DNA of 64,000 nt from the NCBI RefSeq assembly GCF_006542395.2, contig NZ_CP038231.1, positions 1,860,001 to 1,924,000 of the forward strand, written 5' to 3'. The first letter of the stretch is position 1, and every line of letters begins with the position of its first letter. This document shows, piece by piece, positions 26,270-62,206 of the stretch. The position numbers were made by a program, and so were the translations under genes. Under the pieces are notes generated by a model. That model was not told where the DNA came from, searched no databases, and worked only from the letters and a program-made list of their open reading frames with translations. This stretch comes from Formicincola oecophyllae. GTDB taxonomy: Bacteria > Pseudomonadota > Alphaproteobacteria > Acetobacterales > Acetobacteraceae.

Positions 26270-26608
26270 ATGTCCAGCAATGAGCTCCGTAAAGGCCGCC
26301 ACACCACTTACGGCAAGCGCATTGGCCTGTACGGGGAAGGGGGCAGTCATGCTGGATTCTTGCAGGATGACAACAGCGTCGTGCTGTCCTTCCCGTTCAA
26401 GGATTGTGTCCTTGAAGGGGGCATGACCAAAGAAGACAAAAAACGTGAAGAACGTTACCTGCACCAGGCGATGGACCGCAGGGACATCAACACCCTGTTT
26501 GAACCCAAAGTCTTGACAGGCTTTGAGTTTGTGGGCGATCCCAACAGCCAACAGCCAACAGCCAACAGCCAACAGCCAACAGCCAACAGCCAACAGCCAA
26601 CACTGTAG
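26270..26608 (+). CDS. mod: Type III modification methylase, N-terminal segment, out of frame with the rest (phase OFF)
   Basis: ATG 26270 has AGGGAAC just upstream and encodes 112 residues. Residues 1-90 are the standard Mod N-terminus: RKGRHTTYGKRIGLYGE, FPFKDCVLEGGMTKEDKKRE, then INTLFEPKVLTGFEFVGD. The sequence then enters eight-plus copies of a 7-base repeat, read as PTANSQQ, and stops just after them. The remaining Mod sequence continues in a different frame from 26527 onward. One more repeat unit (nine) or two fewer (six) would join both parts into one protein of normal type III Mod layout. As written, only a short fragment would be made. Confidence 0.8.
   Translation: MSSNELRKGRHTTYGKRIGLYGEGGSHAGFLQDDNSVVLSFPFKDCVLEGGMTKEDKKREERYLHQAMDRRDINTLFEPKVLTGFEFVGDPNSQQPTANSQQPTANSQQPTL
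26541..26602 (+). repeat. Heptanucleotide tandem repeat (CCAACAG) x 8 plus a partial copy, inside mod
   Basis: Eight perfect CCAACAG units fill 26541-26596 and a ninth, incomplete unit (CCAACA) follows. Because 7 is not a multiple of 3, gain or loss of a unit shifts the frame, while all three frames of the repeat stay open. Such repeats change length by slipped-strand mispairing and act as on/off switches. Confidence 0.95.
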
Positions 26609-26682
26609 AGTTTTTTGACGAACAAGGTGCCCTCAAGCAGAACCTGCTGATCAAGGGCAACAACCTGCTGGCTCTCCACGCT

Positions 26683-28026
26683 TTGGAGCCGCGCCTGGCT
26701 GGCAAGGTGAAGCTCATTTACATTGACCCGCCTTACAACACAGGCAGTGACGGTTTTAAATATAATGATGACTTCAACCATTCATCATGGTTGGTGTTCA
26801 TGAAAAACCGTCTTGAAATAGCCCAAAAGCTTTTAAAAGATGATGGCGTTATATTGGTCCATTGTGATGATCAAGAGCAGGCTTATTTAAAAGTTCTTAT
26901 GGATGAGGTGTTCGGGCGCGATAATTTTGTTGAAACCTTTATATGGAAAAATTCTGATAATGCGCCAAATTTGTCTAAAAAATCACGTAGTTCAGTAGAA
27001 TATATCCATGCTTATGAAAAGAAAATGGATAAATCTATTCCTTACATAGGTAAATTAACTGAAAATGGTGATGCTCCATTAAATCATAGAGGCAATTCAA
27101 TCAAAGAACTTACATTTCCTCAAAAATCTATAAAATTTAATATCAAAGATTGTAATGTTAAAGTTGGAAAACCTGACAGAATAGAAATAATGAATGAATT
27201 TGAGATTTTTGATGGCCTTAATGATAGAGCAGTTCGTCTTAAAGGGGATTTTGTTTGGACACAAGAAAAGTTAGAAGAGGAAATTCAGTCTGGGACCTAT
27301 TTTATTGTTAAATCAGATAAATTTGCTATCAGATTTCAACGGTTAAACACCAAGCCAATGGCGCCTGAGAAATTTATTGGCAATAATTATCTAACCAAAT
27401 CCCTTGGGATAGGTACTAATGAAGACGCAAGCAGTCATTTAAGGGAAATGAATATAAAATTCGCTTATTCCAAGCCTGAAAGTATAGTGGCTTTTTTCAT
27501 CAAGGCCATTACCAACCCAGGGGATATTGTTCTGGACTACCATCTTGGTTCGGGCACCACGGCTGCTGTGGCCCATAAAATGGGCCGGCGCTGGATTGGC
27601 ATTGAGCAGATGGACTATATCGAGAACATCACCAAGGAACGCCTCAAAAAAGTCATCGCTGGCGAGCAAGGCGGGGTTTCGGAAGCCTTGAAATGGCACG
27701 GTGGGGGCACGTTCGTTTATTTTGAACTGAAGAAATACAACCAGGAATTCTTGGAGCGCATCATGGCGGCAGATAGCTTAAGCGCTTTGAAAGCCGTGCA
27801 GGACGACATGTTCAGGAACGCCTTCCTCACCTTCTGGACTGATGCCAGGGAGTTCAGGGAAGAGCATGACTACGGCAAACTCAGTTTGGAGGAACGCAAA
27901 AAGAAGCTCATCGCCGTGTTGGACGAAAACCACTTCTACCTCAACAAGCGTGAGATGAATGACAAGCGCCACGTGGTTTCAGGGGAAGAGAAAGCCCTGA
28001 CCACACGTTTCTACGGTGAAGGCTGA
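26683..28026 (+). CDS. mod: Type III DNA modification methylase (adenine-N6), catalytic part
   Basis: The protein is open from 26527; TTG 26683 is only the first start-like codon. Codons upstream (NTVEFFDEQGALKQNLLIKG) already belong to Mod, so the true protein begins at 26270 once the repeat is in register. Catalytic motif IV DPPY lies at about 26725-26736 (IYIDPPYNTG) and the AdoMet motif follows near the C-terminus (LDYHLGSGTTAAVAHKMG). That order marks a beta-class N6-adenine methylase like EcoP15I Mod. The segment 26757-27480, where target recognition lies, is strikingly AT-rich compared with both flanks, a sign of exchange from another source. Its stop overlaps the res start (TGATG). 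Confidence 0.9.
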   Translation: MEPRLAGKVKLIYIDPPYNTGSDGFKYNDDFNHSSWLVFMKNRLEIAQKLLKDDGVILVHCDDQEQAYLKVLMDEVFGRDNFVETFIWKNSDNAPNLSKKSRSSVEYIHAYEKKMDKSIPYIGKLTENGDAPLNHRGNSIKELTFPQKSIKFNIKDCNVKVGKPDRIEIMNEFEIFDGLNDRAVRLKGDFVWTQEKLEEEIQSGTYFIVKSDKFAIRFQRLNTKPMAPEKFIGNNYLTKSLGIGTNEDASSHLREMNIKFAYSKPESIVAFFIKAITNPGDIVLDYHLGSGTTAAVAHKMGRRWIGIEQMDYIENITKERLKKVIAGEQGGVSEALKWHGGGTFVYFELKKYNQEFLERIMAADSLSALKAVQDDMFRNAFLTFWTDAREFREEHDYGKLSLEERKKKLIAVLDENHFYLNKREMNDKRHVVSGEEKALTTRFYGEG

Positions 28027-28715
28027 TGGGCAAGGCAACTGTCCTCCAACAGGATACCATCCAACAATCCCTTGAAGGGGCCCTGTTCAACCAGTTGGCC
28101 ACAGACCACGCCTACCAGGTATGGGCCCAGAATGAAGGCCAGGAACTACCCGCCTGTATAACGGACAACCTTTCGCGCACATTGCGTGATTACCAGGAAG
28201 AGGCGGTCAGGCGTTTCATTTGGTTGTTTGAGAACGACCGTGCCCAGGCCAGGCACCTGCTGTTCAACATGGCCACGGGCACTGGTAAGACCGTCACCTT
28301 GGCTGCCCTGGTGCTTTACCTTTACAGCCAAGGCTATCGGAACTTCGTGTTTTTGGTGCACCAGCTCAACATCAAGGAGCAAGCCGAAAACGTCTTGACG
28401 GTGGCCCGTGACAAATCAGGCCCCAACCCAAAATACTTGTTCAACCCCAAGGGCGTTAAAATCAATGGCCAGGCTGTGCACATTCAAAGCGGCGCAGGGT
28501 TTGTTCGCGCTGCCGCGCCCAACCCGCCAGCCATCATCAATTTCATTTTCACCACCACTTCTGGCCTTTACAACGCCCTGACTGTTGAAAGAGAAAATGA
28601 GTTGGGACTGGATGATTTCGCTCAGAACCCCACAGTTCTCCTGGCTGATGAAGCCCACCATTTGAATGTGGAAACCAGGAAAAGCGTCACTAAAAGGACA
28701 AGGAAGAATTGCTGA
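28026..28715 (+). pseudogene. res: Type III restriction enzyme, N-terminal helicase part (frameshifted)
   Basis: ATG 28026 overlaps the mod stop. The 229-residue fragment holds the translocase start: LRDYQEEAVRRFIWLFEND, Walker A NMATGTGKTVTLAALVL, the region FVFLVHQLNIKEQ, and the Walker B/DEAH motif LLADEAHHLN. After ETRKSVTK the frame changes at the A-run 28692-28695 and ends at 28713-28715. One extra A would give KKDKEELLNWE and join it to the next frame. This is either a real inactivating deletion or a sequencing error in a short A-run. Confidence 0.8.
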
Positions 28716-30949
28716 ACTGGGAAACCGCTGTTCAGAAAGCCTTTGCCAGGCGCCAAGACAACCTGTTGCTGGAGTTCACGGCCACTGTTGATTACAAAAA
28801 CCCCAACATTCTTGAGAAATACAAAAGCAAAATCATCCAGCGCTATGATTTCAAGGCGTTCAACCAAGATGGTTACAGCAAAGTGGTCAGGCCACTTTAC
28901 AATGAGGCCACCCAGGCCATTGACCAGAAACGCGCGCTCATCGTCCATGCGGTGGCGTTGAGCCAATACCGCAAGTTGCTGGCAGCCAGTTTGGGGGTGG
29001 TCCTCAATCCGGTCATCCTGGTCAAATCCACCAAAGTAAAGCAGTCAGAAGAGGACAGGAATTTTTTCAACGCCGTCATCCAGTCCATAACGCCAGAGGA
29101 CTTCAGGCCCTTGTTGAAGTTGGGGGACAGTTTGCGCAGTGCCCTCAGCAAAGCTGAAGCGTCCTCAACAACCTCTTCCCAGGGCCATCAGGAAGATTTA
29201 ACCATTGCGCAGATGTTCACCTGGCTGGCTGACGCCAAACGCCGTGGCGCCCTGGCTGGCCCCCGGGACCCAGATGGCCTGCAGCATTTCATAGCCAGCA
29301 TTAAGGAGGATTTCTCCCCTGAGAGCACGTTGGTGTACAACAGCCAGAAAAAGGACAATCCCACCCTGCTTAAAAAGCTGGATGACCCACGTAATACCAT
29401 CAGGACCATCTTTTCCGTTCAGGCCTTGAATGAAGGCTGGGATGTGTTGAGCCTTTTTGACATCATCCACTTTGACATTGCCAGCACCAAAAAGGTTTCC
29501 TTGCAGGATGTTCAGCTGATTGGTCGGGGCGCCCGGTTGTTCCCTTACGAATTGCCTAGAAAATATGACAACGCCGGCATGTTCTCCCAAGATTTCGGCA
29601 CGGACCGTTACAAACGGAAATTTGACCGCAGCCCCCAAGCCCATGAACGCATCCTTGAAACCATGTTCTACCATTTCGTCAAAACGGGAGCTTACTGGGA
29701 GGGGCTCAAAGAAGACCTGTTGGGTGAAGGGATCATCAACCGGGGCAGCGTCAAAATCACCTTGAAGCTCAAAGAGCACTTTCAAAAAAGTGAGACCTAC
29801 AGGAAAGGTTTTGTGCTCCTCAACAAACGTGTGCAGCGCACGGAAGTCACTGAAAGGGAATTGGACGCCTTTCTCCAGAAGCCCCTTGAGGTGCGCCCTT
29901 ATGAACTGCGCAGTGAAAGCCTGCATGACAGGCAGCGCGCCCAAGCCATGGAGGCTTTGGAGACAAAAAAAATAAAGCTGACGGAGGAGTTTTTCTCCAG
30001 AACGCTTTTGCGCTCTGCCCTCATGGTGGCTGAGGGGGACTTCTTCCGCCATGAGAATCTTGCGCGCCATTTGCCAGGCCTAGAAAGCGTTGATGTGTTC
30101 CTGACAAGGCACTTGCCCCGATTTGAGATCATTTACCGCCACCATCCCAACAAATCTTTTGAAGGGCTTTCCGCGCAGGAAAAGCACCATTTGCTGGTTC
30201 ATGCGGTTCTGCCCCAAATCAGAAAAGCCATGGACAGGGAAATGCCCCTCATGATGGGCAGCCGCACATTTTACCCTGTCCCCATGGAAAAGGTGTTTTC
30301 CAAGGTCAAGGACATCTGGTTGGTTGCTGACGATGGCGCCACTGGGCCTCAGGGTGAGAAATTGCCTTTCTCCTCCACGGAACGTGCGCGCAGCCAAATC
30401 AATCATTTTGATGATGAACTGCGTTGTGACCTATCCCGGGAAAGTTGGTATGCCCACAATGATAATTATGGCACTTTAGAAGAAAAACGCTTTGTCAAAT
30501 ATATTCAAAACCACATCACAAAGCTGCAAAGCAGGTTTAAGGGCTGTGAGATTTTCCTTTTGCGTAATGAGCTGGAGTATTTCGTTTACAGCTTGAAGGA
30601 TGGAAGGCGTTTCGCGCCAGATTACCTGTTATTCATCAATGATAGGGTAAACCGGCAATTTTATTTCCAATGTCTGCTGGAGGCCAAGGGGGAACATCTT
30701 TGGGAACATGATTCCTGGAAGCAAGAGGCCCTGCTGAACATCACCCATAATGCCGAAGTGGACTTGACGGCACCGCCTGGTGGTGTGGAGGTGCACGGCA
30801 AATCATTTGTGGCTTCAGCAGATTTTCTCCTTACTGTTCGTGCAGAACATTATGAAACGATCAAATGTTTGGGCGTAGCTTTCTATAATGCTGAACCTGA
30901 AAAGGAACAGGCATTCCAAACAAGCCTTGGAACCACTTTGGGTTTATGA
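28709..30949 (+). pseudogene. res: Type III restriction enzyme, remaining part (helicase domain 2 and nuclease)
   Basis: This 746-residue segment begins at TTG 28709 in the shifted frame. It contains the second RecA-like lobe (LEFTATVDYKN; FSVQALNEGWDVLSLFDIIHF; DVQLIGRGARLFPYEL, the motif VI arginines) and a C-terminal PD-(D/E)xK endonuclease (RFAPDYLLFINDR ... FQCLLEAKGEHLWEHDSWKQ). It is otherwise intact and would complete a Res subunit of about 970 residues. With mod out of frame as well, the system as sequenced should neither methylate nor cut. Confidence 0.85.
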
Positions 30950-31905: not shown

Positions 31906-33189
31906 TCAGTTGTTGGAGATGAAAGCGATTTTCCGCGCTAGGCGCCGGCACTCCCGCCCAAGCAGGCGCGCCTTGGCCAGAAGCCCCTCCTGTGTGGTGC
32001 TACCCACTGGCAGGGAGCGGGCTTGACTGTGCAGTTCCTTGAGCGCGCGCCGGGCCTCCTTGATGTCGCGCACGGTTTGCTGGGTGTAGAATAACCGCAT
32101 TGTCGTCAGCGCGCTGTTGAGGGAGCCAACGCGGATCTCCGCCAAGGGGAAGTCCTGCCCGTACTGGGCGCTGTCCACCCCCATGGGGGCCAAGGCCAGC
32201 GAAAGCGCTGATGAATGCGTTGGCGGCATCATCTCAGGCGTGTGGAACAGAAGCGCCTTGCCGCGCTGGCGCAGCACAGCTGGCTGCTGGGTGGGGGCGC
32301 CTGCCGCGCTTTTCAGGTGCCATTCAGGGCTTGGCGCTAGTTCCAGGCGGCTGCAATGGATGTTCTCCACAATGGCGTAGACATGCTGCCCCATGCCGCG
32401 CCCGCCATTGGCCACCTCCAGCGTGAAGGGCAGGGGCGAGGAGCGGCCGCGCATACGTTTGAGGCCCTTGCGGTCGCGCTCCAGCCCCAGTTGGAAGGAG
32501 GCGCGCGGCAGGAGGCCGAACATGCCGCGCAGCATTTCTGGCTGGGCATCGATGAAGGATTCGCCAGCGCGCACATAGTAGCGCCTGTCCACCTCGCTGC
32601 GGTAAGGGACATTAGGCCCCGGCGGGATAAGGCTGATGACCATGCCGCGCTCACGCACCCTGCCGTCCCTGCCTGTGAAAGCGTACTGGAAGGGAAGGTT
32701 CTCCACAGCGCTGGCGGCGGGGAACACCGCTTTGGAGAGGTGCGAGTTCAATAATTCAGCATAGCGCGCAGCGTTGGCTGCCCCCAGGGGGCCTTCAAGG
32801 CTCATGGCGGGTTCGCCGTTGCGGTGGGTGCGCTTTTCCGAATGCCCGTCAGAGGTGCGGAAGCAATCCTGCAGGCGCTGAGCGGGGGAGCGGAGGTCGC
32901 CTTCAGGGCCGAAGTTCTTCGGGTCGATCAAGCCCCACACTAAAATACCGCCAGCACTGTTGCTGAAGCCAGAAAGGGCCTTGCTGTAGTTCTTCATGCT
33001 GTTGCGCTGCAGCGTGAAAGGTGGCCTGGGGCGGTTGGTCAGCACCATTTCTTTGAAGTCCAGGTACATGTCCTCCTGCAAGCCATTTTCCAGGATGTCG
33101 CGCACAACGGCCTGCAGCCTGGCTTGGCGCACTTCTGCGTCATCCATCTGGGCGGCTTCCTGAACGCGCCTGAGCATGGGCTGAACCAT
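31906..33189 (-). CDS. AlbA_2 (Schlafen-type) domain protein
   Basis: The 427-residue protein starts at ATG 33189 (GGGGGT upstream). Residues about 40-220 form an AlbA_2 domain: EDMYLDFKEMV (the family's E-x-x-x-D/E-F-K start), KALSGFSNSAGGILVWGLID (the helix-strand with the Gly loop), then DRRYYVRAGESFIDA. AlbA_2 domains bind nucleic acid or nucleotide and occur in regulators and defence proteins. The usual C-terminal HATPase-like or winged-helix partner is not evident; the second half has a Gly-rich segment (EVANGGRGMGQHVYAIV) and a basic coiled-coil end (LLAKARLLGRECRRLARK). It sits 125 bases below the RadC-like gene. Confidence 0.7.
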   Translation of the reverse strand: MVQPMLRRVQEAAQMDDAEVRQARLQAVVRDILENGLQEDMYLDFKEMVLTNRPRPPFTLQRNSMKNYSKALSGFSNSAGGILVWGLIDPKNFGPEGDLRSPAQRLQDCFRTSDGHSEKRTHRNGEPAMSLEGPLGAANAARYAELLNSHLSKAVFPAASAVENLPFQYAFTGRDGRVRERGMVISLIPPGPNVPYRSEVDRRYYVRAGESFIDAQPEMLRGMFGLLPRASFQLGLERDRKGLKRMRGRSSPLPFTLEVANGGRGMGQHVYAIVENIHCSRLELAPSPEWHLKSAAGAPTQQPAVLRQRGKALLFHTPEMMPPTHSSALSLALAPMGVDSAQYGQDFPLAEIRVGSLNSALTTMRLFYTQQTVRDIKEARRALKELHSQARSLPVGSTTQEGLLAKARLLGRECRRLARKIAFISNN

Positions 33190-33313
33190 GGTACACCCCC
33201 TGTGTGCCGCTGTGTGTTCCTGTTGTGCCTACAGCTGCGCCGCCAAGCGCCACCGTGGCCCCTGGCGCGCCACCCCACACCGCAGACCATCGCACGCTTT
33301 CAAGGGGGGCGTG

Positions 33314-35179
33314 TCAAGCGCGGCCTGAGGGGCTGCTGCCCACAAGCGTGCCCGCCATGATGCAGTGGCAGTGGGTGGCACCCACTACGATGTGCTCCGC
33401 TAACTCCACCCCCACCAGCGCCAAAGCGTCCTGCACTTTGTCAGTCATCTGTTTGTCCATGGCAGAGGGGGTGGGATCGCCGCTGGGGTGGTTGTGCACC
33501 ACCAGAACGCTGTGCGCCTGGAGTTCCAGCGCCAGGCGCGCGATCTCACGCGGGTAGACGGGCGCTTGATTGACAGTGCCTGTTCCTGTGATGCGTTCAG
33601 CAACGCTGTGGCCATGCTGGTTGAGGAACAGCACCCTGAACTGCTCTTCCCCCAAATTGCCCATCATGACGGCTAGATGGTGGAGGAGCGCCAAAGGAGC
33701 TTGGCGCAAATCCAGCCCTTCCAGGCGGGCTGCGCTTAAACGGTGGCAGAGGGCGCGCAGCACCATCAGGTGCATGGCGGTGCCCTCCACTGGTTTGGCC
33801 TCCCCCCAGGCCCACTGCCCCTGAACGCGCAATGCCAGCGGGTCTTGTAGAAGGCAGCGCAGGCGCAAACTGGCCACAGCTTCATGGTGGGCTGTTTGGC
33901 GCCCTCCCAAGGATTGAATACGGTGCGCGCGGCTTGGGCCGGACAATGGTATGGGGCGCTTGCCTGAAGGGGGGCACTGGGCTTCCTGCAGCCCTTCTGC
34001 TCCACGGGCCCATTCTGGCGCTGCCCCAGCTGGGTAGTAGGCGCCTTCCAAACCTGCCTCCGTAGCGGTCAGGCCAGCCATGAACTCGTCAGCGTCTGGG
34101 ACGCTGTCAGCCAGCGTGAAGGGGGGTGGGCTTTCTTCTGCCCCCTCTGCCCAGTCATTTTGGCGGAGGGCGGCCTGCAGGTTGGGTGGCAACGCCACCA
34201 CGCCCCACAGGCAGCCCAAGGCCTGGCCCAACGTTTCAAGCGTTTGCCACGCCGGTTGCCCTGGGTGGAGGGTGGGCAGGCGGGCATTCCAATCCACTTT
34301 GGCCGGTTTAGCGTGTTCCGGACTGGCATGTTTCCGGCAACGCTCCGATTGGACGGGGCCATGGAGGGCAACGGCGCTTTGGTGGGCAGGCTCATCCAAA
34401 GCTGGCAAGGGCAACATGGTGTGGATAACAACCCCCAAATGAGCCAGGCCATCCCGCAAGGCCGCGCGGGCCTGGCCATGTTCGGCCGCCAACCAGGTTG
34501 GTGGTGCCAACACCACCAGCGCCGTGGCCCCCACCAGCAAGCAGCGTCTGGCCAGCAGGGGGAGAGCGCCATGCCAGCCACCGGTGAACAGGTTCTCATC
34601 AGCTAGGATGTTGTTGGCGCTGCCCAGGAAAAGCACCCTGAGAGCGCGTGTGGGGGCTGTGTTGGCAGGGCTTTTGCCAGGGCCCGGCTGATGGAGAGCT
34701 GGAGTGGTTGAGAAGGGCTGTGGCGCCGCTTGGAGATAGGCTTCCAGCCGTTCTGGCCCCTCAAGCAACCAAGGCCGCAGGGTTAGGCCAGGCGCTAAGT
34801 GGGACAAGCAAAGCGCAGGCAGCGCTAGCAGGGCGCTGGCTTTGGGGCTGGCGCCAGCAGCGGCTAGGGCTGATGGTTCCGCCCCCAGAAGCCCGGCCAA
34901 ACCTTTGAAGGCCGCCAAAAAGTGCTTGGCGGTTGCCTTGGTGTCACGCCTTGGGTGGCTGGCAAATAGCAAGGCTTCAATCAGTTCGTAATCAGCCAGC
35001 CCCTCTGGCCCGTGGCGGAGGATGCGCCCGCGCAAACGCGCCCTGTGGCCAGCCCCCGCCGCGCTGCGCGCCTTGGTTGGGGTGTGTGCGCCCTTGGTCA
35101 CGGCTTTGCCCGTTTCCTTCCCCCCTGGTGGGGCGGCAGGTGAAGCTGGCGCTGGATTGGATGTTTTGCGCGTGGCCAT
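33314..35179 (-). CDS. RadC-family protein with two MPN/JAB domains, the first degenerate
   Basis: At 621 residues it is more than twice the usual RadC length (about 220-250). Residues 44-110 match the RadC helix-hairpin-helix start (GHRARLRGRILRHGPEGLADYELIEALLF). Residues 177-260 resemble an MPN domain (RVLFLGSANNILADENLF) in which the metal site HNHPSG is replaced by LAPPTWL. After a long variable middle comes a second MPN domain (about 505-610), EEQFRVLFLNQHGH. It has a complete JAMM motif: His562, His564, Ser572, Asp575 in HNHPSGDPTPSAMD. RadC's cellular role is still unclear, and links to DNA repair are disputed. The start lies only 17 bases from the divergent uvrD start. Confidence 0.85.
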   Translation of the reverse strand: MATRKTSNPAPASPAAPPGGKETGKAVTKGAHTPTKARSAAGAGHRARLRGRILRHGPEGLADYELIEALLFASHPRRDTKATAKHFLAAFKGLAGLLGAEPSALAAAGASPKASALLALPALCLSHLAPGLTLRPWLLEGPERLEAYLQAAPQPFSTTPALHQPGPGKSPANTAPTRALRVLFLGSANNILADENLFTGGWHGALPLLARRCLLVGATALVVLAPPTWLAAEHGQARAALRDGLAHLGVVIHTMLPLPALDEPAHQSAVALHGPVQSERCRKHASPEHAKPAKVDWNARLPTLHPGQPAWQTLETLGQALGCLWGVVALPPNLQAALRQNDWAEGAEESPPPFTLADSVPDADEFMAGLTATEAGLEGAYYPAGAAPEWARGAEGLQEAQCPPSGKRPIPLSGPSRAHRIQSLGGRQTAHHEAVASLRLRCLLQDPLALRVQGQWAWGEAKPVEGTAMHLMVLRALCHRLSAARLEGLDLRQAPLALLHHLAVMMGNLGEEQFRVLFLNQHGHSVAERITGTGTVNQAPVYPREIARLALELQAHSVLVVHNHPSGDPTPSAMDKQMTDKVQDALALVGVELAEHIVVGATHCHCIMAGTLVGSSPSGRA

Positions 35180-59841: not shown

Positions 59842-61050
59842 TCACGCCCCAAGCGTTGGCAAGGAGGGCAGTCTCTGAAGGGTGGGGCTGCCTTCAGCGC
59901 CTGTTTCCACCCCCCAGAACGCCGCCTGACCTTCCAAGGGGGCGAAGGTGCTGCGGTCCGTGCCGGTCAGCAGGGCTGTGGCGCCCGCTTCAAGCAAGCG
60001 TTCCATCAAGGCCTCGCGGTGGAGGGCGTCCAAGTGCAGCAAAGGCTCGTCTAGAAGCAGCACTGGCCTGACGGGACCCACCTGCGCCATCAGGCGCGCA
60101 TGGTCGAGGAGCGTTCCCAACACCATGGTTTTCTGCTGGCCACTGCTGGCCTCCCCCCCCAAGCGCCCTGTGGTGGCATCCCGCAACGTGAAATGCGCTT
60201 TGTGCGCGCCAAAGCCGCAGTAGCCGCGCAGAGCGTCCTCCTGGCGGTTTTGGCGCAAGGTGGCTTTCATCCATTCCTCCACCTCCAGTGCCGGCATAGA
60301 AGCCAGGCGTTCAGCCAAGGGGCAGGAAAGCTCCAGCAGGCTGCGGGGGAAGGCGTGCCGCGTTGACGAGGGGGGGGAAGGCGGCGCTGGCAAGGCCGCC
60401 ATGGCCTCCAGGAAAGCCAGGCGCGCTGCCGTGGCGGCAACAGCATGCCGGCTGAGGGAGGCCTCAAGCGCATCAAGCCAATCATGGTCCCATGTTCCTG
60501 GCGGGGCAGCCAGAAGGCGGTTGCGCCCAGCCAAGGCCTGCTCATGGGCGGCCATTTCCCGCGCATGGCCTGGCTGGTGGGCCACCACCAGGCGGTCCAG
60601 AAAACGCCTGCGCCCGCCTGCGCCCTCGCTGCACAGCCTGTCCATGGCGGGGGTCTGCCACACGCAGGCGAACCAATCAGCCACGTCAGCCTGGCTGCGC
60701 ACAGCTTCGCCATCCAAGCGGAACTGGCGCCGGCGCTGGCCTTCCTCCACAGCGGTGGCCAGGGTGATGGCCTCCTGCCCATGGGGGCTTTCCACAGTCA
60801 ATTCCGCAGCAACACCCCACCCCCCCCTCAGCCCTTCCCCACCAGGGGGTTGGTAGGCCAGGCGCCCTAAGGGGGCCGCGCGCAGGCCGCGCCCAGGCGC
60901 CAGGAGGGAGACAGCCTCCAGAACATTGGTTTTGCCGGCCCCGTTAGGCCCTGTGAGTATGGTGAGGCCAGGTCCAGGGCGCCATGATAGGCGTGTGTAG
61001 TTGCGGAAGTCCGTCAGGGTGAGCTTGCTGATGTGAACGTTCTGCGCCAC
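59842..61050 (-). CDS. recF: DNA replication and repair protein RecF
   Basis: RecF helps load RecA at gaps through the RecFOR pathway. The protein has 402 residues; GTG 61050 has GAGGAAAAC upstream. It is an SMC-like ABC ATPase: ISKLTLTDFRNYTRLSW, Walker A GPNGAGKTNVLEAVSLLAPG, FRLDGEAVRSQADV, RRRFLDRLV, signature region GGEASSGQQKTMVLG and Walker B PVLLLDEPLLHLDALHR. The length and order are normal. It stands directly upstream of gyrB, the common bacterial order, and its upstream flank carries the repeat element and CRISPR array 2. Confidence 0.95.
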   Translation of the reverse strand: MAQNVHISKLTLTDFRNYTRLSWRPGPGLTILTGPNGAGKTNVLEAVSLLAPGRGLRAAPLGRLAYQPPGGEGLRGGWGVAAELTVESPHGQEAITLATAVEEGQRRRQFRLDGEAVRSQADVADWFACVWQTPAMDRLCSEGAGGRRRFLDRLVVAHQPGHAREMAAHEQALAGRNRLLAAPPGTWDHDWLDALEASLSRHAVAATAARLAFLEAMAALPAPPSPPSSTRHAFPRSLLELSCPLAERLASMPALEVEEWMKATLRQNRQEDALRGYCGFGAHKAHFTLRDATTGRLGGEASSGQQKTMVLGTLLDHARLMAQVGPVRPVLLLDEPLLHLDALHREALMERLLEAGATALLTGTDRSTFAPLEGQAAFWGVETGAEGSPTLQRLPSLPTLGA

Positions 61051-61275: not shown

Positions 61276-62206
61276 TTTCTGAGCTGCCGGTGCGGCAGGA
61301 AACAACGGCCGGGAACACAGTACTGACAGATGAGTTTTCTGAGCTGCCTGTGCGGCAGAGAACGCCGATTTCCTGTGTCCTCCCTCCATCTTTACTTTCT
61401 GAGCTGCCTGTGTGGCAGAGAACACCAAGCTGCGCTTGGGTGGCGATGCCGGGCATTTCTGAGCTGCCTGTGCGGCAGAGAACAAACGGGCATGCTGGGC
61501 TACCCCGCTTACAGCTTTCTGAGCTGCCTGTGCGGCAGAGAACCTGGGGCTGCCTTTCAGGGTGCCACTGTTCACCTTTCTGAGCTGCCTGTGCGGCAGA
61601 GAACACTGAACGCCTCGACTAATGCAGTTTTTGCAATTTCTGAGCTGCCTGTGCGGCAGAGAACGCTGCGCGGCCAGTTCGTTGACCAGGTTCCGCTTTC
61701 TGAGCTGCCTGTGCGGCAGAGAACACGACAGCGCGACAAATCCCCTGTTTGCGGTCTTTCTGAGCTGCCTGTGCGGCAGAGAACGGGTAAGGGTCTGTCT
61801 CTTTCGCCGTGACAAATTTCTGAGCTGCCTGTGCGGCAGAGAACACTCTCCGGCTCAATGCTTATTAAACCCCTGGATTTCTGAGCTGCCTGTGCGGCAG
61901 AGAACAATGGAAGCTTTGTCCAGTTGTTGTCTGTACCATTTCTGAGCTGCCTGTGCGGCAGAGAACTAATCCAGTAAACACCATCCTGGTTGCCGTCATT
62001 TCTGAGCTGCCTGTGCGGCAGAGAACCAGGTGCCCCAGCGTCCCAGGCACAGCCGACTTTTCTGAGCTGCCTGTGCGGCAGAGAACACGACAGCGCGACA
62101 AATCCCCTGTTCGCAGTCTTTCTGAGCTGCCTGTGCGGCAGAGAACCGTCACGCCCCATCCTTCACACGCGGGGCAGTTTTCTGAGCTGCCTGTGCGGCA
62201 GAGAAC
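61276..62206 (-). CRISPR. CRISPR array 2, type I-F style repeat, 16 repeats
   Basis: Repeats start at 61276, 61336, 61396, 61456, 61516, 61577, 61637, 61697, 61757, 61817, 61878, 61939, 61999, 62059, 62119 and 62179. The 15 spacers are 32 bp (12 of them) or 33 bp. The consensus equals that of array 1. The 61276 repeat is degenerate (GCCGGTG, CAGGAAAC) and marks the trailer end; 61396 has one change. The leader should lie to the right of 62206, where the flank is AT-rich. Spacers at 61725-61756 and 62087-62118 are near-identical. No cas gene is found within the window, so the interference proteins must be encoded elsewhere or be absent. Confidence 0.97.

What the first reader, a model, noticed from the sequence alone, without database searches (positions are those of the whole stretch)
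26541..26602. Phase-variable type III methylase switched by a 7-bp repeat, currently OFF
Eight full CCAACAG units plus a partial one lie between the Mod N-terminus and the DPPY catalytic part. The two halves are in different frames: 26270 and 26683 differ by 413 bases. Nine units, or six, would restore one continuous Mod. The repeat itself is open in all three frames. Phase-variable mod genes (phasevarions) are well known in Haemophilus, Neisseria and Moraxella, mostly with 4- or 5-bp repeats. A heptamer-controlled one in an acetic acid bacterium appears new to me.
Basis: partly seen in the sequence, partly recalled or inferred. Interest (0 to 1): 0.8.

Follow-up and report, generated by a model that had tools for sequence, protein, structure and literature searches.

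The report
Repeat-switched DNA methylase gene, OFF here
A DNA-marking enzyme gene in what looks like an acetic acid bacterium carries a slippery 7-base repeat that, at its present length, puts the enzyme out of frame (off); gaining one repeat would turn it on, as in known switchable methylases of pathogens, so it is a new case of a known kind of epigenetic switch.

Summary
A perfect CCAACAG tract (62 bp, 8.86 units, 26541-26602) sits in a type III mod gene between its N-terminal domain and the DPPY methyltransferase core. At 8 full units translation stops after 112 codons; 6, 9 or 12 units give a 580-594 aa Mod. The longest perfect tandem in 100 simulated 64-kb sequences, and the longest multi-base one in 400 kb sampled from the same genome, was 20 bp. 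Best independent support: the closest relative found in the family (G115) has an unrelated 5-bp tract (ACTCA x16.6) at the same hinge, also out of frame. A Helicobacter mod has C12 in that linker; gonococcal modA has AGCC x22 in a nearby loop. The target-recognition region is a 32% GC, probably foreign, cassette between conserved flanks, as in allelic phase-variable mods. Most likely this is a slipped-strand phase-variable mod, currently OFF, with restriction probably lost. Length variation, methylation and a regulon were not observed. It is a new member of a known kind.

The parts
26270..26608 (+). mod, 5' part: N-terminal domain, ending at a TAG in the present 8-unit state (112 codons)
   Evidence: 65% identical to the G115 Mod N-domain over 85 aa, 58% to an Acinetobacter plasmid Mod over 90 aa; no Pfam or NCBIfam match of its own
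26541..26602 (+). CCAACAG tract, 8.86 perfect units: the proposed slipped-strand switch
26527..28026 (+). mod, catalytic part in another frame: DPPY at 26725-26736, recognition region about 26956-27456, motif I (DYHLGSGTT) near 27535
   Evidence: PF01555 E 6.9e-46; PADLOC MTase_III E 1e-131
26750..27470 (+). low-GC (32%) stretch covering the target-recognition region, probably an exchanged cassette
   Evidence: GC by 120-bp bins; the 15 lowest of the window's 720-bp GC values all start between 26341 and 27181; piecewise identity
28026..28715 (+). res, 5' part: TGTGKT at 28275, DEAH at 28647; ends early at a frame break in or near the A4 run 28692-28695
28694..30949 (+). res, 3' part in another frame (first listed start TTG 28709), with PD...EAK nuclease-like motif at 30617 and 30680
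   Evidence: (REase_III E 1.1e-61)

Best explanation
This is a type III restriction-modification locus whose mod gene is a slipped-strand, phase-variable gene. During replication the CCAACAG tract can gain or lose 7-bp units; since 7 is not a multiple of 3, each step changes the frame, and only unit counts of 3n (6, 9, 12) link the N-terminal domain to the methyltransferase core. The sequenced state (8 units) is OFF: a 112-residue fragment is made. In the ON state the repeat peptide (NSQQPTA)n is expected to extend a loop just before the catalytic core. Because res is also broken, the probable output is ON/OFF adenine methylation, and possibly a phase-variable regulon, rather than restriction. 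Shown here: the tract, the frames, the family, the site and its recurrence in a relative, the mosaic recognition region, the res break in this sequence. Inferred: actual length variation, methylation activity, loss of restriction in the living strain, gene regulation.
For: Perfect 62-bp tract far outside chance and outside a 400-kb sample of the genome. Frame arithmetic with both halves otherwise open. Type III Mod and Res matches: PF01555, ResIII, PADLOC MTase_III and REase_III. The nearest relative found, G115 (the only one of 396 other family genomes with a match better than E 1e-60), has ACTCA x16.6 at the same hinge and is also out of frame. Helicobacter sp. 13S00482-2 has C12 in the same linker with the frames differing. 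Relatives on Acinetobacter plasmids (L059, L061) join the two halves with a short SSR-free linker. Recognition-region mosaic: versus G115 71% / 24% / 66% (5', recognition, 3'), while a Pediococcus plasmid Mod gives 49% in the recognition region; its GC is 32% against 62% outside the locus. Literature passages: 17.4% of type III mod genes carry SSRs (PMC7394358); inactivating res mutations beside phase-variable mods in Haemophilus and Neisseria (PMC2667262) and Helicobacter (PMC3230613); mod genes OFF in most meningococcal carriage isolates (PMC7157529).
Against: No length variation has been seen: only one genome of the genus is held. Res is frame-broken here, and in G115 mod has an in-frame TAA and res its own frame break, so decay is a live rival. 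Among 17 informative relatives outside the family compared at this linker, only 1 has a tract there, so the switch is not a general property of these Mods. Switching rates for 8-9 heptamers in this host are unknown.
Confidence: 0.8

Rival explanations
1. A decaying restriction-modification locus: mod and res are both dead, and the repeat is a relic of a former switch that no longer matters.
For: res frame break in the window and, in the relative G115, a TAA inside mod plus a res frame break near a T6 run.
Against: The methyltransferase half is fully open for 499 codons with its motifs, the tract is still perfect, and OFF mods and broken res genes are described in species with phase-variable mods.
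Confidence: 0.25
2. A phase-variable defence system: both Mod and Res work when ON, and the res break is a sequencing error or a rare mutant of this one strain.
For: Res keeps TGTGKT, DEAH and PD...EAK motifs and the break fits a small indel near a short A run. In an ORF survey of the window no other split gene stood out, and two overlapping same-strand ORF pairs checked turned out to be whole genes of different families; so a lone error or a lone mutation are both possible.
Against: The break cuts res right after the DEAH motif; an error cannot be shown without reads. An A4 run is too short to be a likely switch of its own (general knowledge).
Confidence: 0.12
3. The unit count or the frame break is an assembly artefact, and the gene is really in frame.
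For: Short tandem repeats are commonly miscounted by assemblers (general knowledge); no reads were available.
Against: A miscount would still leave a perfect frame-shifting repeat in mod, and the nearest relative found has a different tract at the same place.
Confidence: 0.06
4. The repeat is selected as a protein linker (tandem peptide), not as a DNA switch.
For: All three frames encode the same polar heptapeptide NSQQPTA.
Against: The unit is not a multiple of three, the DNA is perfect at every position, and the present length breaks the protein.
Confidence: 0.02

Closest known systems
ModA phasevarion methylase of Neisseria (AGCC repeats; gonococcal copy read as locus L060; the name ModA rests on its AGCC repeat as described in PMC2667262)
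   Same: Type III Mod, 62% identical in the 5' core, 47% in the 3' part and 30% in the recognition region; same motif I variant DYHLGSGTT; frame-shifting tract in the 5' part of the gene; res lesions reported (PMC2667262, passages).
   Different: Tetramer rather than heptamer; the tract lies in an earlier loop of the N-terminal domain, not at the hinge before the core; further N-terminal residues are present there.
   Same: 71% / 66% identity in the conserved 5' and 3' parts; tract at the same hinge; out of frame; res frame-broken.
   Different: Pentamer ACTCA x16.6; different recognition region (24%); extra TAA in mod; PurK, the upstream neighbour in the window, has no match in the 13 kb read there.
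ModH of Helicobacter pylori (poly-G) and ModS of Streptococcus suis (GAGCA)
   Same: ON/OFF mod by SSR in the ORF, allelic recognition regions between conserved flanks, res mutations in some H. pylori strains (passages).
   Different: Unit length and sequence; host-adapted pathogens; variation in repeat number was shown there, not here.
pglE of Neisseria meningitidis
   Same: Phase variation controlled by a heptanucleotide repeat in the gene (PMC7157529, passage).
   Different: Pilin glycosylation gene, not a methylase.

Membership tests
Type III restriction-modification system | Mod with DPPY ahead of an FxGxG-type motif and recognition region between them | tested here: met
   DPPY 26725, DYHLGSGTT near 27535 (F of FxGxG replaced by H, as in the gonococcal locus L060 and 17 other VLDYHLGSGTT matches in fetched sequences, some of them copies of one gene), MTase_III E 1e-131
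Type III restriction-modification system | Adjacent res with helicase motifs and nuclease motif | tested here: met
   Motifs and family present, ATG of res overlaps the stop of mod, but the reading frame is broken
Type III restriction-modification system | Fold of EcoP15I-type Mod | tested here: inconclusive
   Tested only on the relative L007: VIA Z 24.5 to 6k0w (rmsd 3.3, 267 aligned), Z 23.4 to EcoP15I 4zcf (rmsd 3.5, 271 aligned); model mean pLDDT 57.5. By sequence the window's own core matches 6k0w and 4zcf at E 7.8e-29 and 8.5e-29
SSR phase-variable mod (phasevarion-type) | SSR in the ORF whose unit length shifts the frame | tested here: met
SSR phase-variable mod (phasevarion-type) | Variable recognition region between conserved 5' and 3' parts | tested here: met
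   Across species only; GC break. Alleles within the species could not be compared
SSR phase-variable mod (phasevarion-type) | Repeat number differs between cells or strains | not testable with these tools
   Only one genome of the genus is held
SSR phase-variable mod (phasevarion-type) | ON/OFF states change methylation and expression of other genes | not testable with these tools
   Needs methylome and transcriptome data

The most novel reading that the evidence does not exclude
The loop in front of the Mod core is a recurrent birthplace of phase switches: different units (7 bp here, 5 bp in G115, C12 in a Helicobacter) arose or replaced each other at one protein site, and in two separate lineages of one family the restriction half was lost while the switchable methylase was kept, giving phasevarions in bacteria outside the known animal pathogens.
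Probability: 0.3. Interest if true: 0.6.

Novelty: new member of a known kind. Interest (0 to 1): 0.42.

Why it matters
If it switches, a small-genome bacterium outside the usual animal pathogens would use random epigenetic switching. It offers a heptamer-controlled mod to test, and a case where the same protein hinge carries unrelated repeat units in two lineages. About one in six type III mods already carry such repeats (17.4%, PMC7394358, passage), so the mechanism itself is expected.

Tried and rejected
Looked for sister strains: the genus search holds only the window's own genome, so strain comparison failed. The genus of G115 has 2 genomes, 1 with the gene. Viral contigs: 1 pattern match, no relative. 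Phages: no match for the recognition region. A strict class-wide profile search found only the window's own gene, 1 of 385 genomes at E up to 1e-20; the phylum search gave 55 of 398 genomes, the window's own among them, mostly through the general catalytic part. Eight of the 40 plasmid rows listed for the N-domain (H32-H38, H60, all Acinetobacter) annotate it as a separate hypothetical protein; I suspected an OFF switch, but none of the four read has a repeat there, and unrelated ORFs follow, so I take them as truncations. An E. coli plasmid mod annotated as two overlapping genes also has no tract at the join. In 76 DPPY sites of fetched sequences, 7 had a tract (homopolymer of 9 or more, or at least 3.5 units and 14 bp) in up to 600 bp before DPPY; 13 loci were skipped beforehand as copies of the window's gene or of G115, and 9 loci had no recognised DPPY. 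Of the 7, the octamer of L038 lies upstream of the apparent start, and the A10 of L008 and G10 of L049 do not split the frame. A promoter scan found 5 sites against 3.7 expected, none of them upstream of mod on its strand. Papers: 0 for Acetobacteraceae with phase-variable and methyltransferase, 0 for acetic acid bacteria with phase variation and restriction-modification, 9 for phasevarion with symbiont and type III, of which I saw titles and starts of abstracts only and none names acetic acid bacteria; full texts held only. The Atack survey of mod repeats (gky192) and PMC1976455 are not held.

Full report
What is there. The tract at 26541-26602 is exactly as described: 62 bp, 8.86 perfect CCAACAG units. 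It lies inside a type III mod gene. The 5' part (ATG 26270) runs into a stop at 26606-26608 after 112 codons. The catalytic part is open in another frame, from 26527 to the stop at 28024-28026, with DPPY at 26725 and a motif I variant near 27535. It matches PF01555 (E 6.9e-46) and PADLOC's type III methyltransferase (E 1e-131). Of unit counts 4 to 14, the 3n counts (6, 9, 12) give 580, 587 and 594 aa; the other 8 of 11 give 105-127 aa.

Chance. In 100 first-order Markov sequences of 64 kb the longest perfect tandem (unit 2-12, at least 2.5 units) averaged 14.6 bp, maximum 20. In 400 kb sampled from the same genome (20 stretches of 20 kb from a 1,945,806-bp contig) the longest with unit 2 or more was 20 bp and the longest homopolymer 10. 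Three units in a row occur in the own genome only here, as 6 overlapping matches. That the unit is free of stops in every frame is common among 7-mers (69%).

Relatives. Among 397 family genomes, generic methylase matches are nearly universal (383), but apart from the window only G115 is close (E 6.1e-82; the next best is 4.8e-57). G115's gene has ACTCA x16.6 (83 bp) between the same two conserved segments, and its halves are also in different frames. The units are unrelated, so the tract was born twice or replaced. Of the 17 loci from the named genome collection, 2 (L019, L022) lack the N-domain; the other 15 hold 19 Mod copies compared at this linker. Two of the 19 have N gaps there; of the 17 informative ones, 1 (Helicobacter sp. 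13S00482-2, C12) has a tract there with the frames differing. Plasmid and phage relatives L058, L059 and L061-L064 have none in the linker. The gonococcal locus (L060) has AGCC x22.25, but in an earlier loop of the N-domain. A Flavobacteriaceae contig has two mods with G9 and G10 tracts further 5', the frame changing across each. So frame-shifting tracts arise at several points in this family.

Where the site lies in the protein. SSR-free relatives join the halves by a short linker, for example L059 and L061. In a model of the relative L007 (mean pLDDT 57.5; 86-92 per ten-residue block from 81 to 120) the matching place, aligned by eye, is about residues 90-97: the turn after strand 82-89 and a short strand 92-95, ahead of the core. 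The model's best solved matches are type III Mods: 6k0w (Z 24.5, rmsd 3.3, 267 aligned), EcoP15I 4zcf (Z 23.4, 3.5, 271) and Mbo45V 7dsu (Z 21.9, 4.2, 282). That the repeat peptide is tolerated there is inference.

Mosaic. Protein identity of the catalytic part to G115 is 84/118 (71%) in the 5' piece, 35/147 (24%) in the recognition region and 125/189 (66%) in the 3' piece; for the Acinetobacter plasmid Mod L059 it is 71, 29 and 62%. The Pediococcus plasmid Mod is different: 59, 49 and 41%; the Bacteroidia Mod L007 gives 61, 44 and 53%. The recognition stretch has 32% GC against 48.5% for mod-res and 62% for the rest of the window, and the window's lowest 720-bp GC values lie on it. This is the pattern described for allelic phase-variable mods (PMC8125046 and PMC6265453, passages). 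In plasmids the recognition region matched 6 records, of Lactococcus, Enterococcus and Pediococcus.

Res. The downstream gene is a type III res (PADLOC REase_III, E 8.1e-34 and 1.1e-61 for its two parts), but it is split by a frame break in or near the A4 run at 28692-28695, just after DEAH. In G115 res has a frame break near a T6 run, and mod has an extra in-frame TAA. This can mean decay, or that restriction was dropped and methylation kept. The latter was proposed for Haemophilus and Neisseria (PMC2667262, passage seen), and res nonsense and frameshift mutations are reported beside modH (PMC3230613, passage seen). In an ORF survey no other split gene stood out in the window; two overlapping same-strand pairs checked against Pfam are whole genes of different families. 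This weakens, but does not exclude, sequencing error; not every gene was checked.

Mechanism. Best supported: slipped-strand gain or loss of 7-bp units toggles Mod; the sequenced state is OFF; Res needs Mod (PMC5149525, passage) and is broken anyway, so the likely output is ON/OFF methylation. Confidence 0.8 for the switch, and about 0.4 that it controls other genes, which is inference only.

Known or new. SSR-switched mods are a known class: 17.4% of type III mod genes in one survey, as cited in PMC7394358 (passage). Heptamers switch pglE in meningococci (PMC7157529, passage) and sit in the hmw promoters of Haemophilus (PMC11475388, passage). A search for phasevarion, heptanucleotide and mod together gave 3 papers; in the passages seen the heptamers are those of hmw and pglE, none in mod. 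Two searches joining acetic acid bacteria with phase variation gave no paper. The main survey was not readable, so absence from print is not established. Hence: a new member of a known kind, of moderate interest.

Noticed in passing
window 61336-62206: CRISPR-like array: 15 copies of a 28-nt repeat (TTTCTGAGCTGCCTGTGCGGCAGAGAAC, one with a mismatch) at 60-61-bp spacing; two spacers are near-identical (from 61725 and from 62087). Of 7 ORFs between 48167 and 63721 scanned against PADLOC, 6 gave no match and 1 (59842-61050, RecF/SMC-like) gave 51, of which the 25 shown include no cas gene of the array's own. The repeat resembles type I-F repeats (recalled).
   Followed up: partly
window genome G000: No 16S rRNA match in the 3-contig assembly, which is rated 100% complete (but the control search rings in only 9 of 14 genomes). 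With about 1.96 Mb and 61% GC this fits Oecophyllibacter saccharovorans (size and GC recalled), whose sole rrn operon is on a plasmid (PMC10645730, passages). The organism name is a guess.
   Followed up: partly
L056 (G115:C1:972500-985500): ACTCA x16.6 tract in a mod gene that also has an in-frame TAA, beside a frame-broken res: a second candidate phase-variable locus in the family, possibly decaying.
   Followed up: yes
L011 3652-3660 and 8461-8470: Two mod genes on one Flavobacteriaceae MAG contig, with a G9 and a G10 tract in their 5' parts and the frame changing across each: likely phase-variable pair.
   Followed up: partly
L038 1201-1229: Octamer GTGGTTCA x3.6 upstream of the apparent start of a mod in another family genome (G155), with part of its reverse complement nearby: possible intergenic element.
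   Followed up: no
window 31909-35179 (-): Near the mod-res locus lie a weak Schlafen/AlbA_2-like ORF (below the Pfam cut-off) and a RadC-like gene; mod-res follows a purE-purK pair.
   Followed up: no
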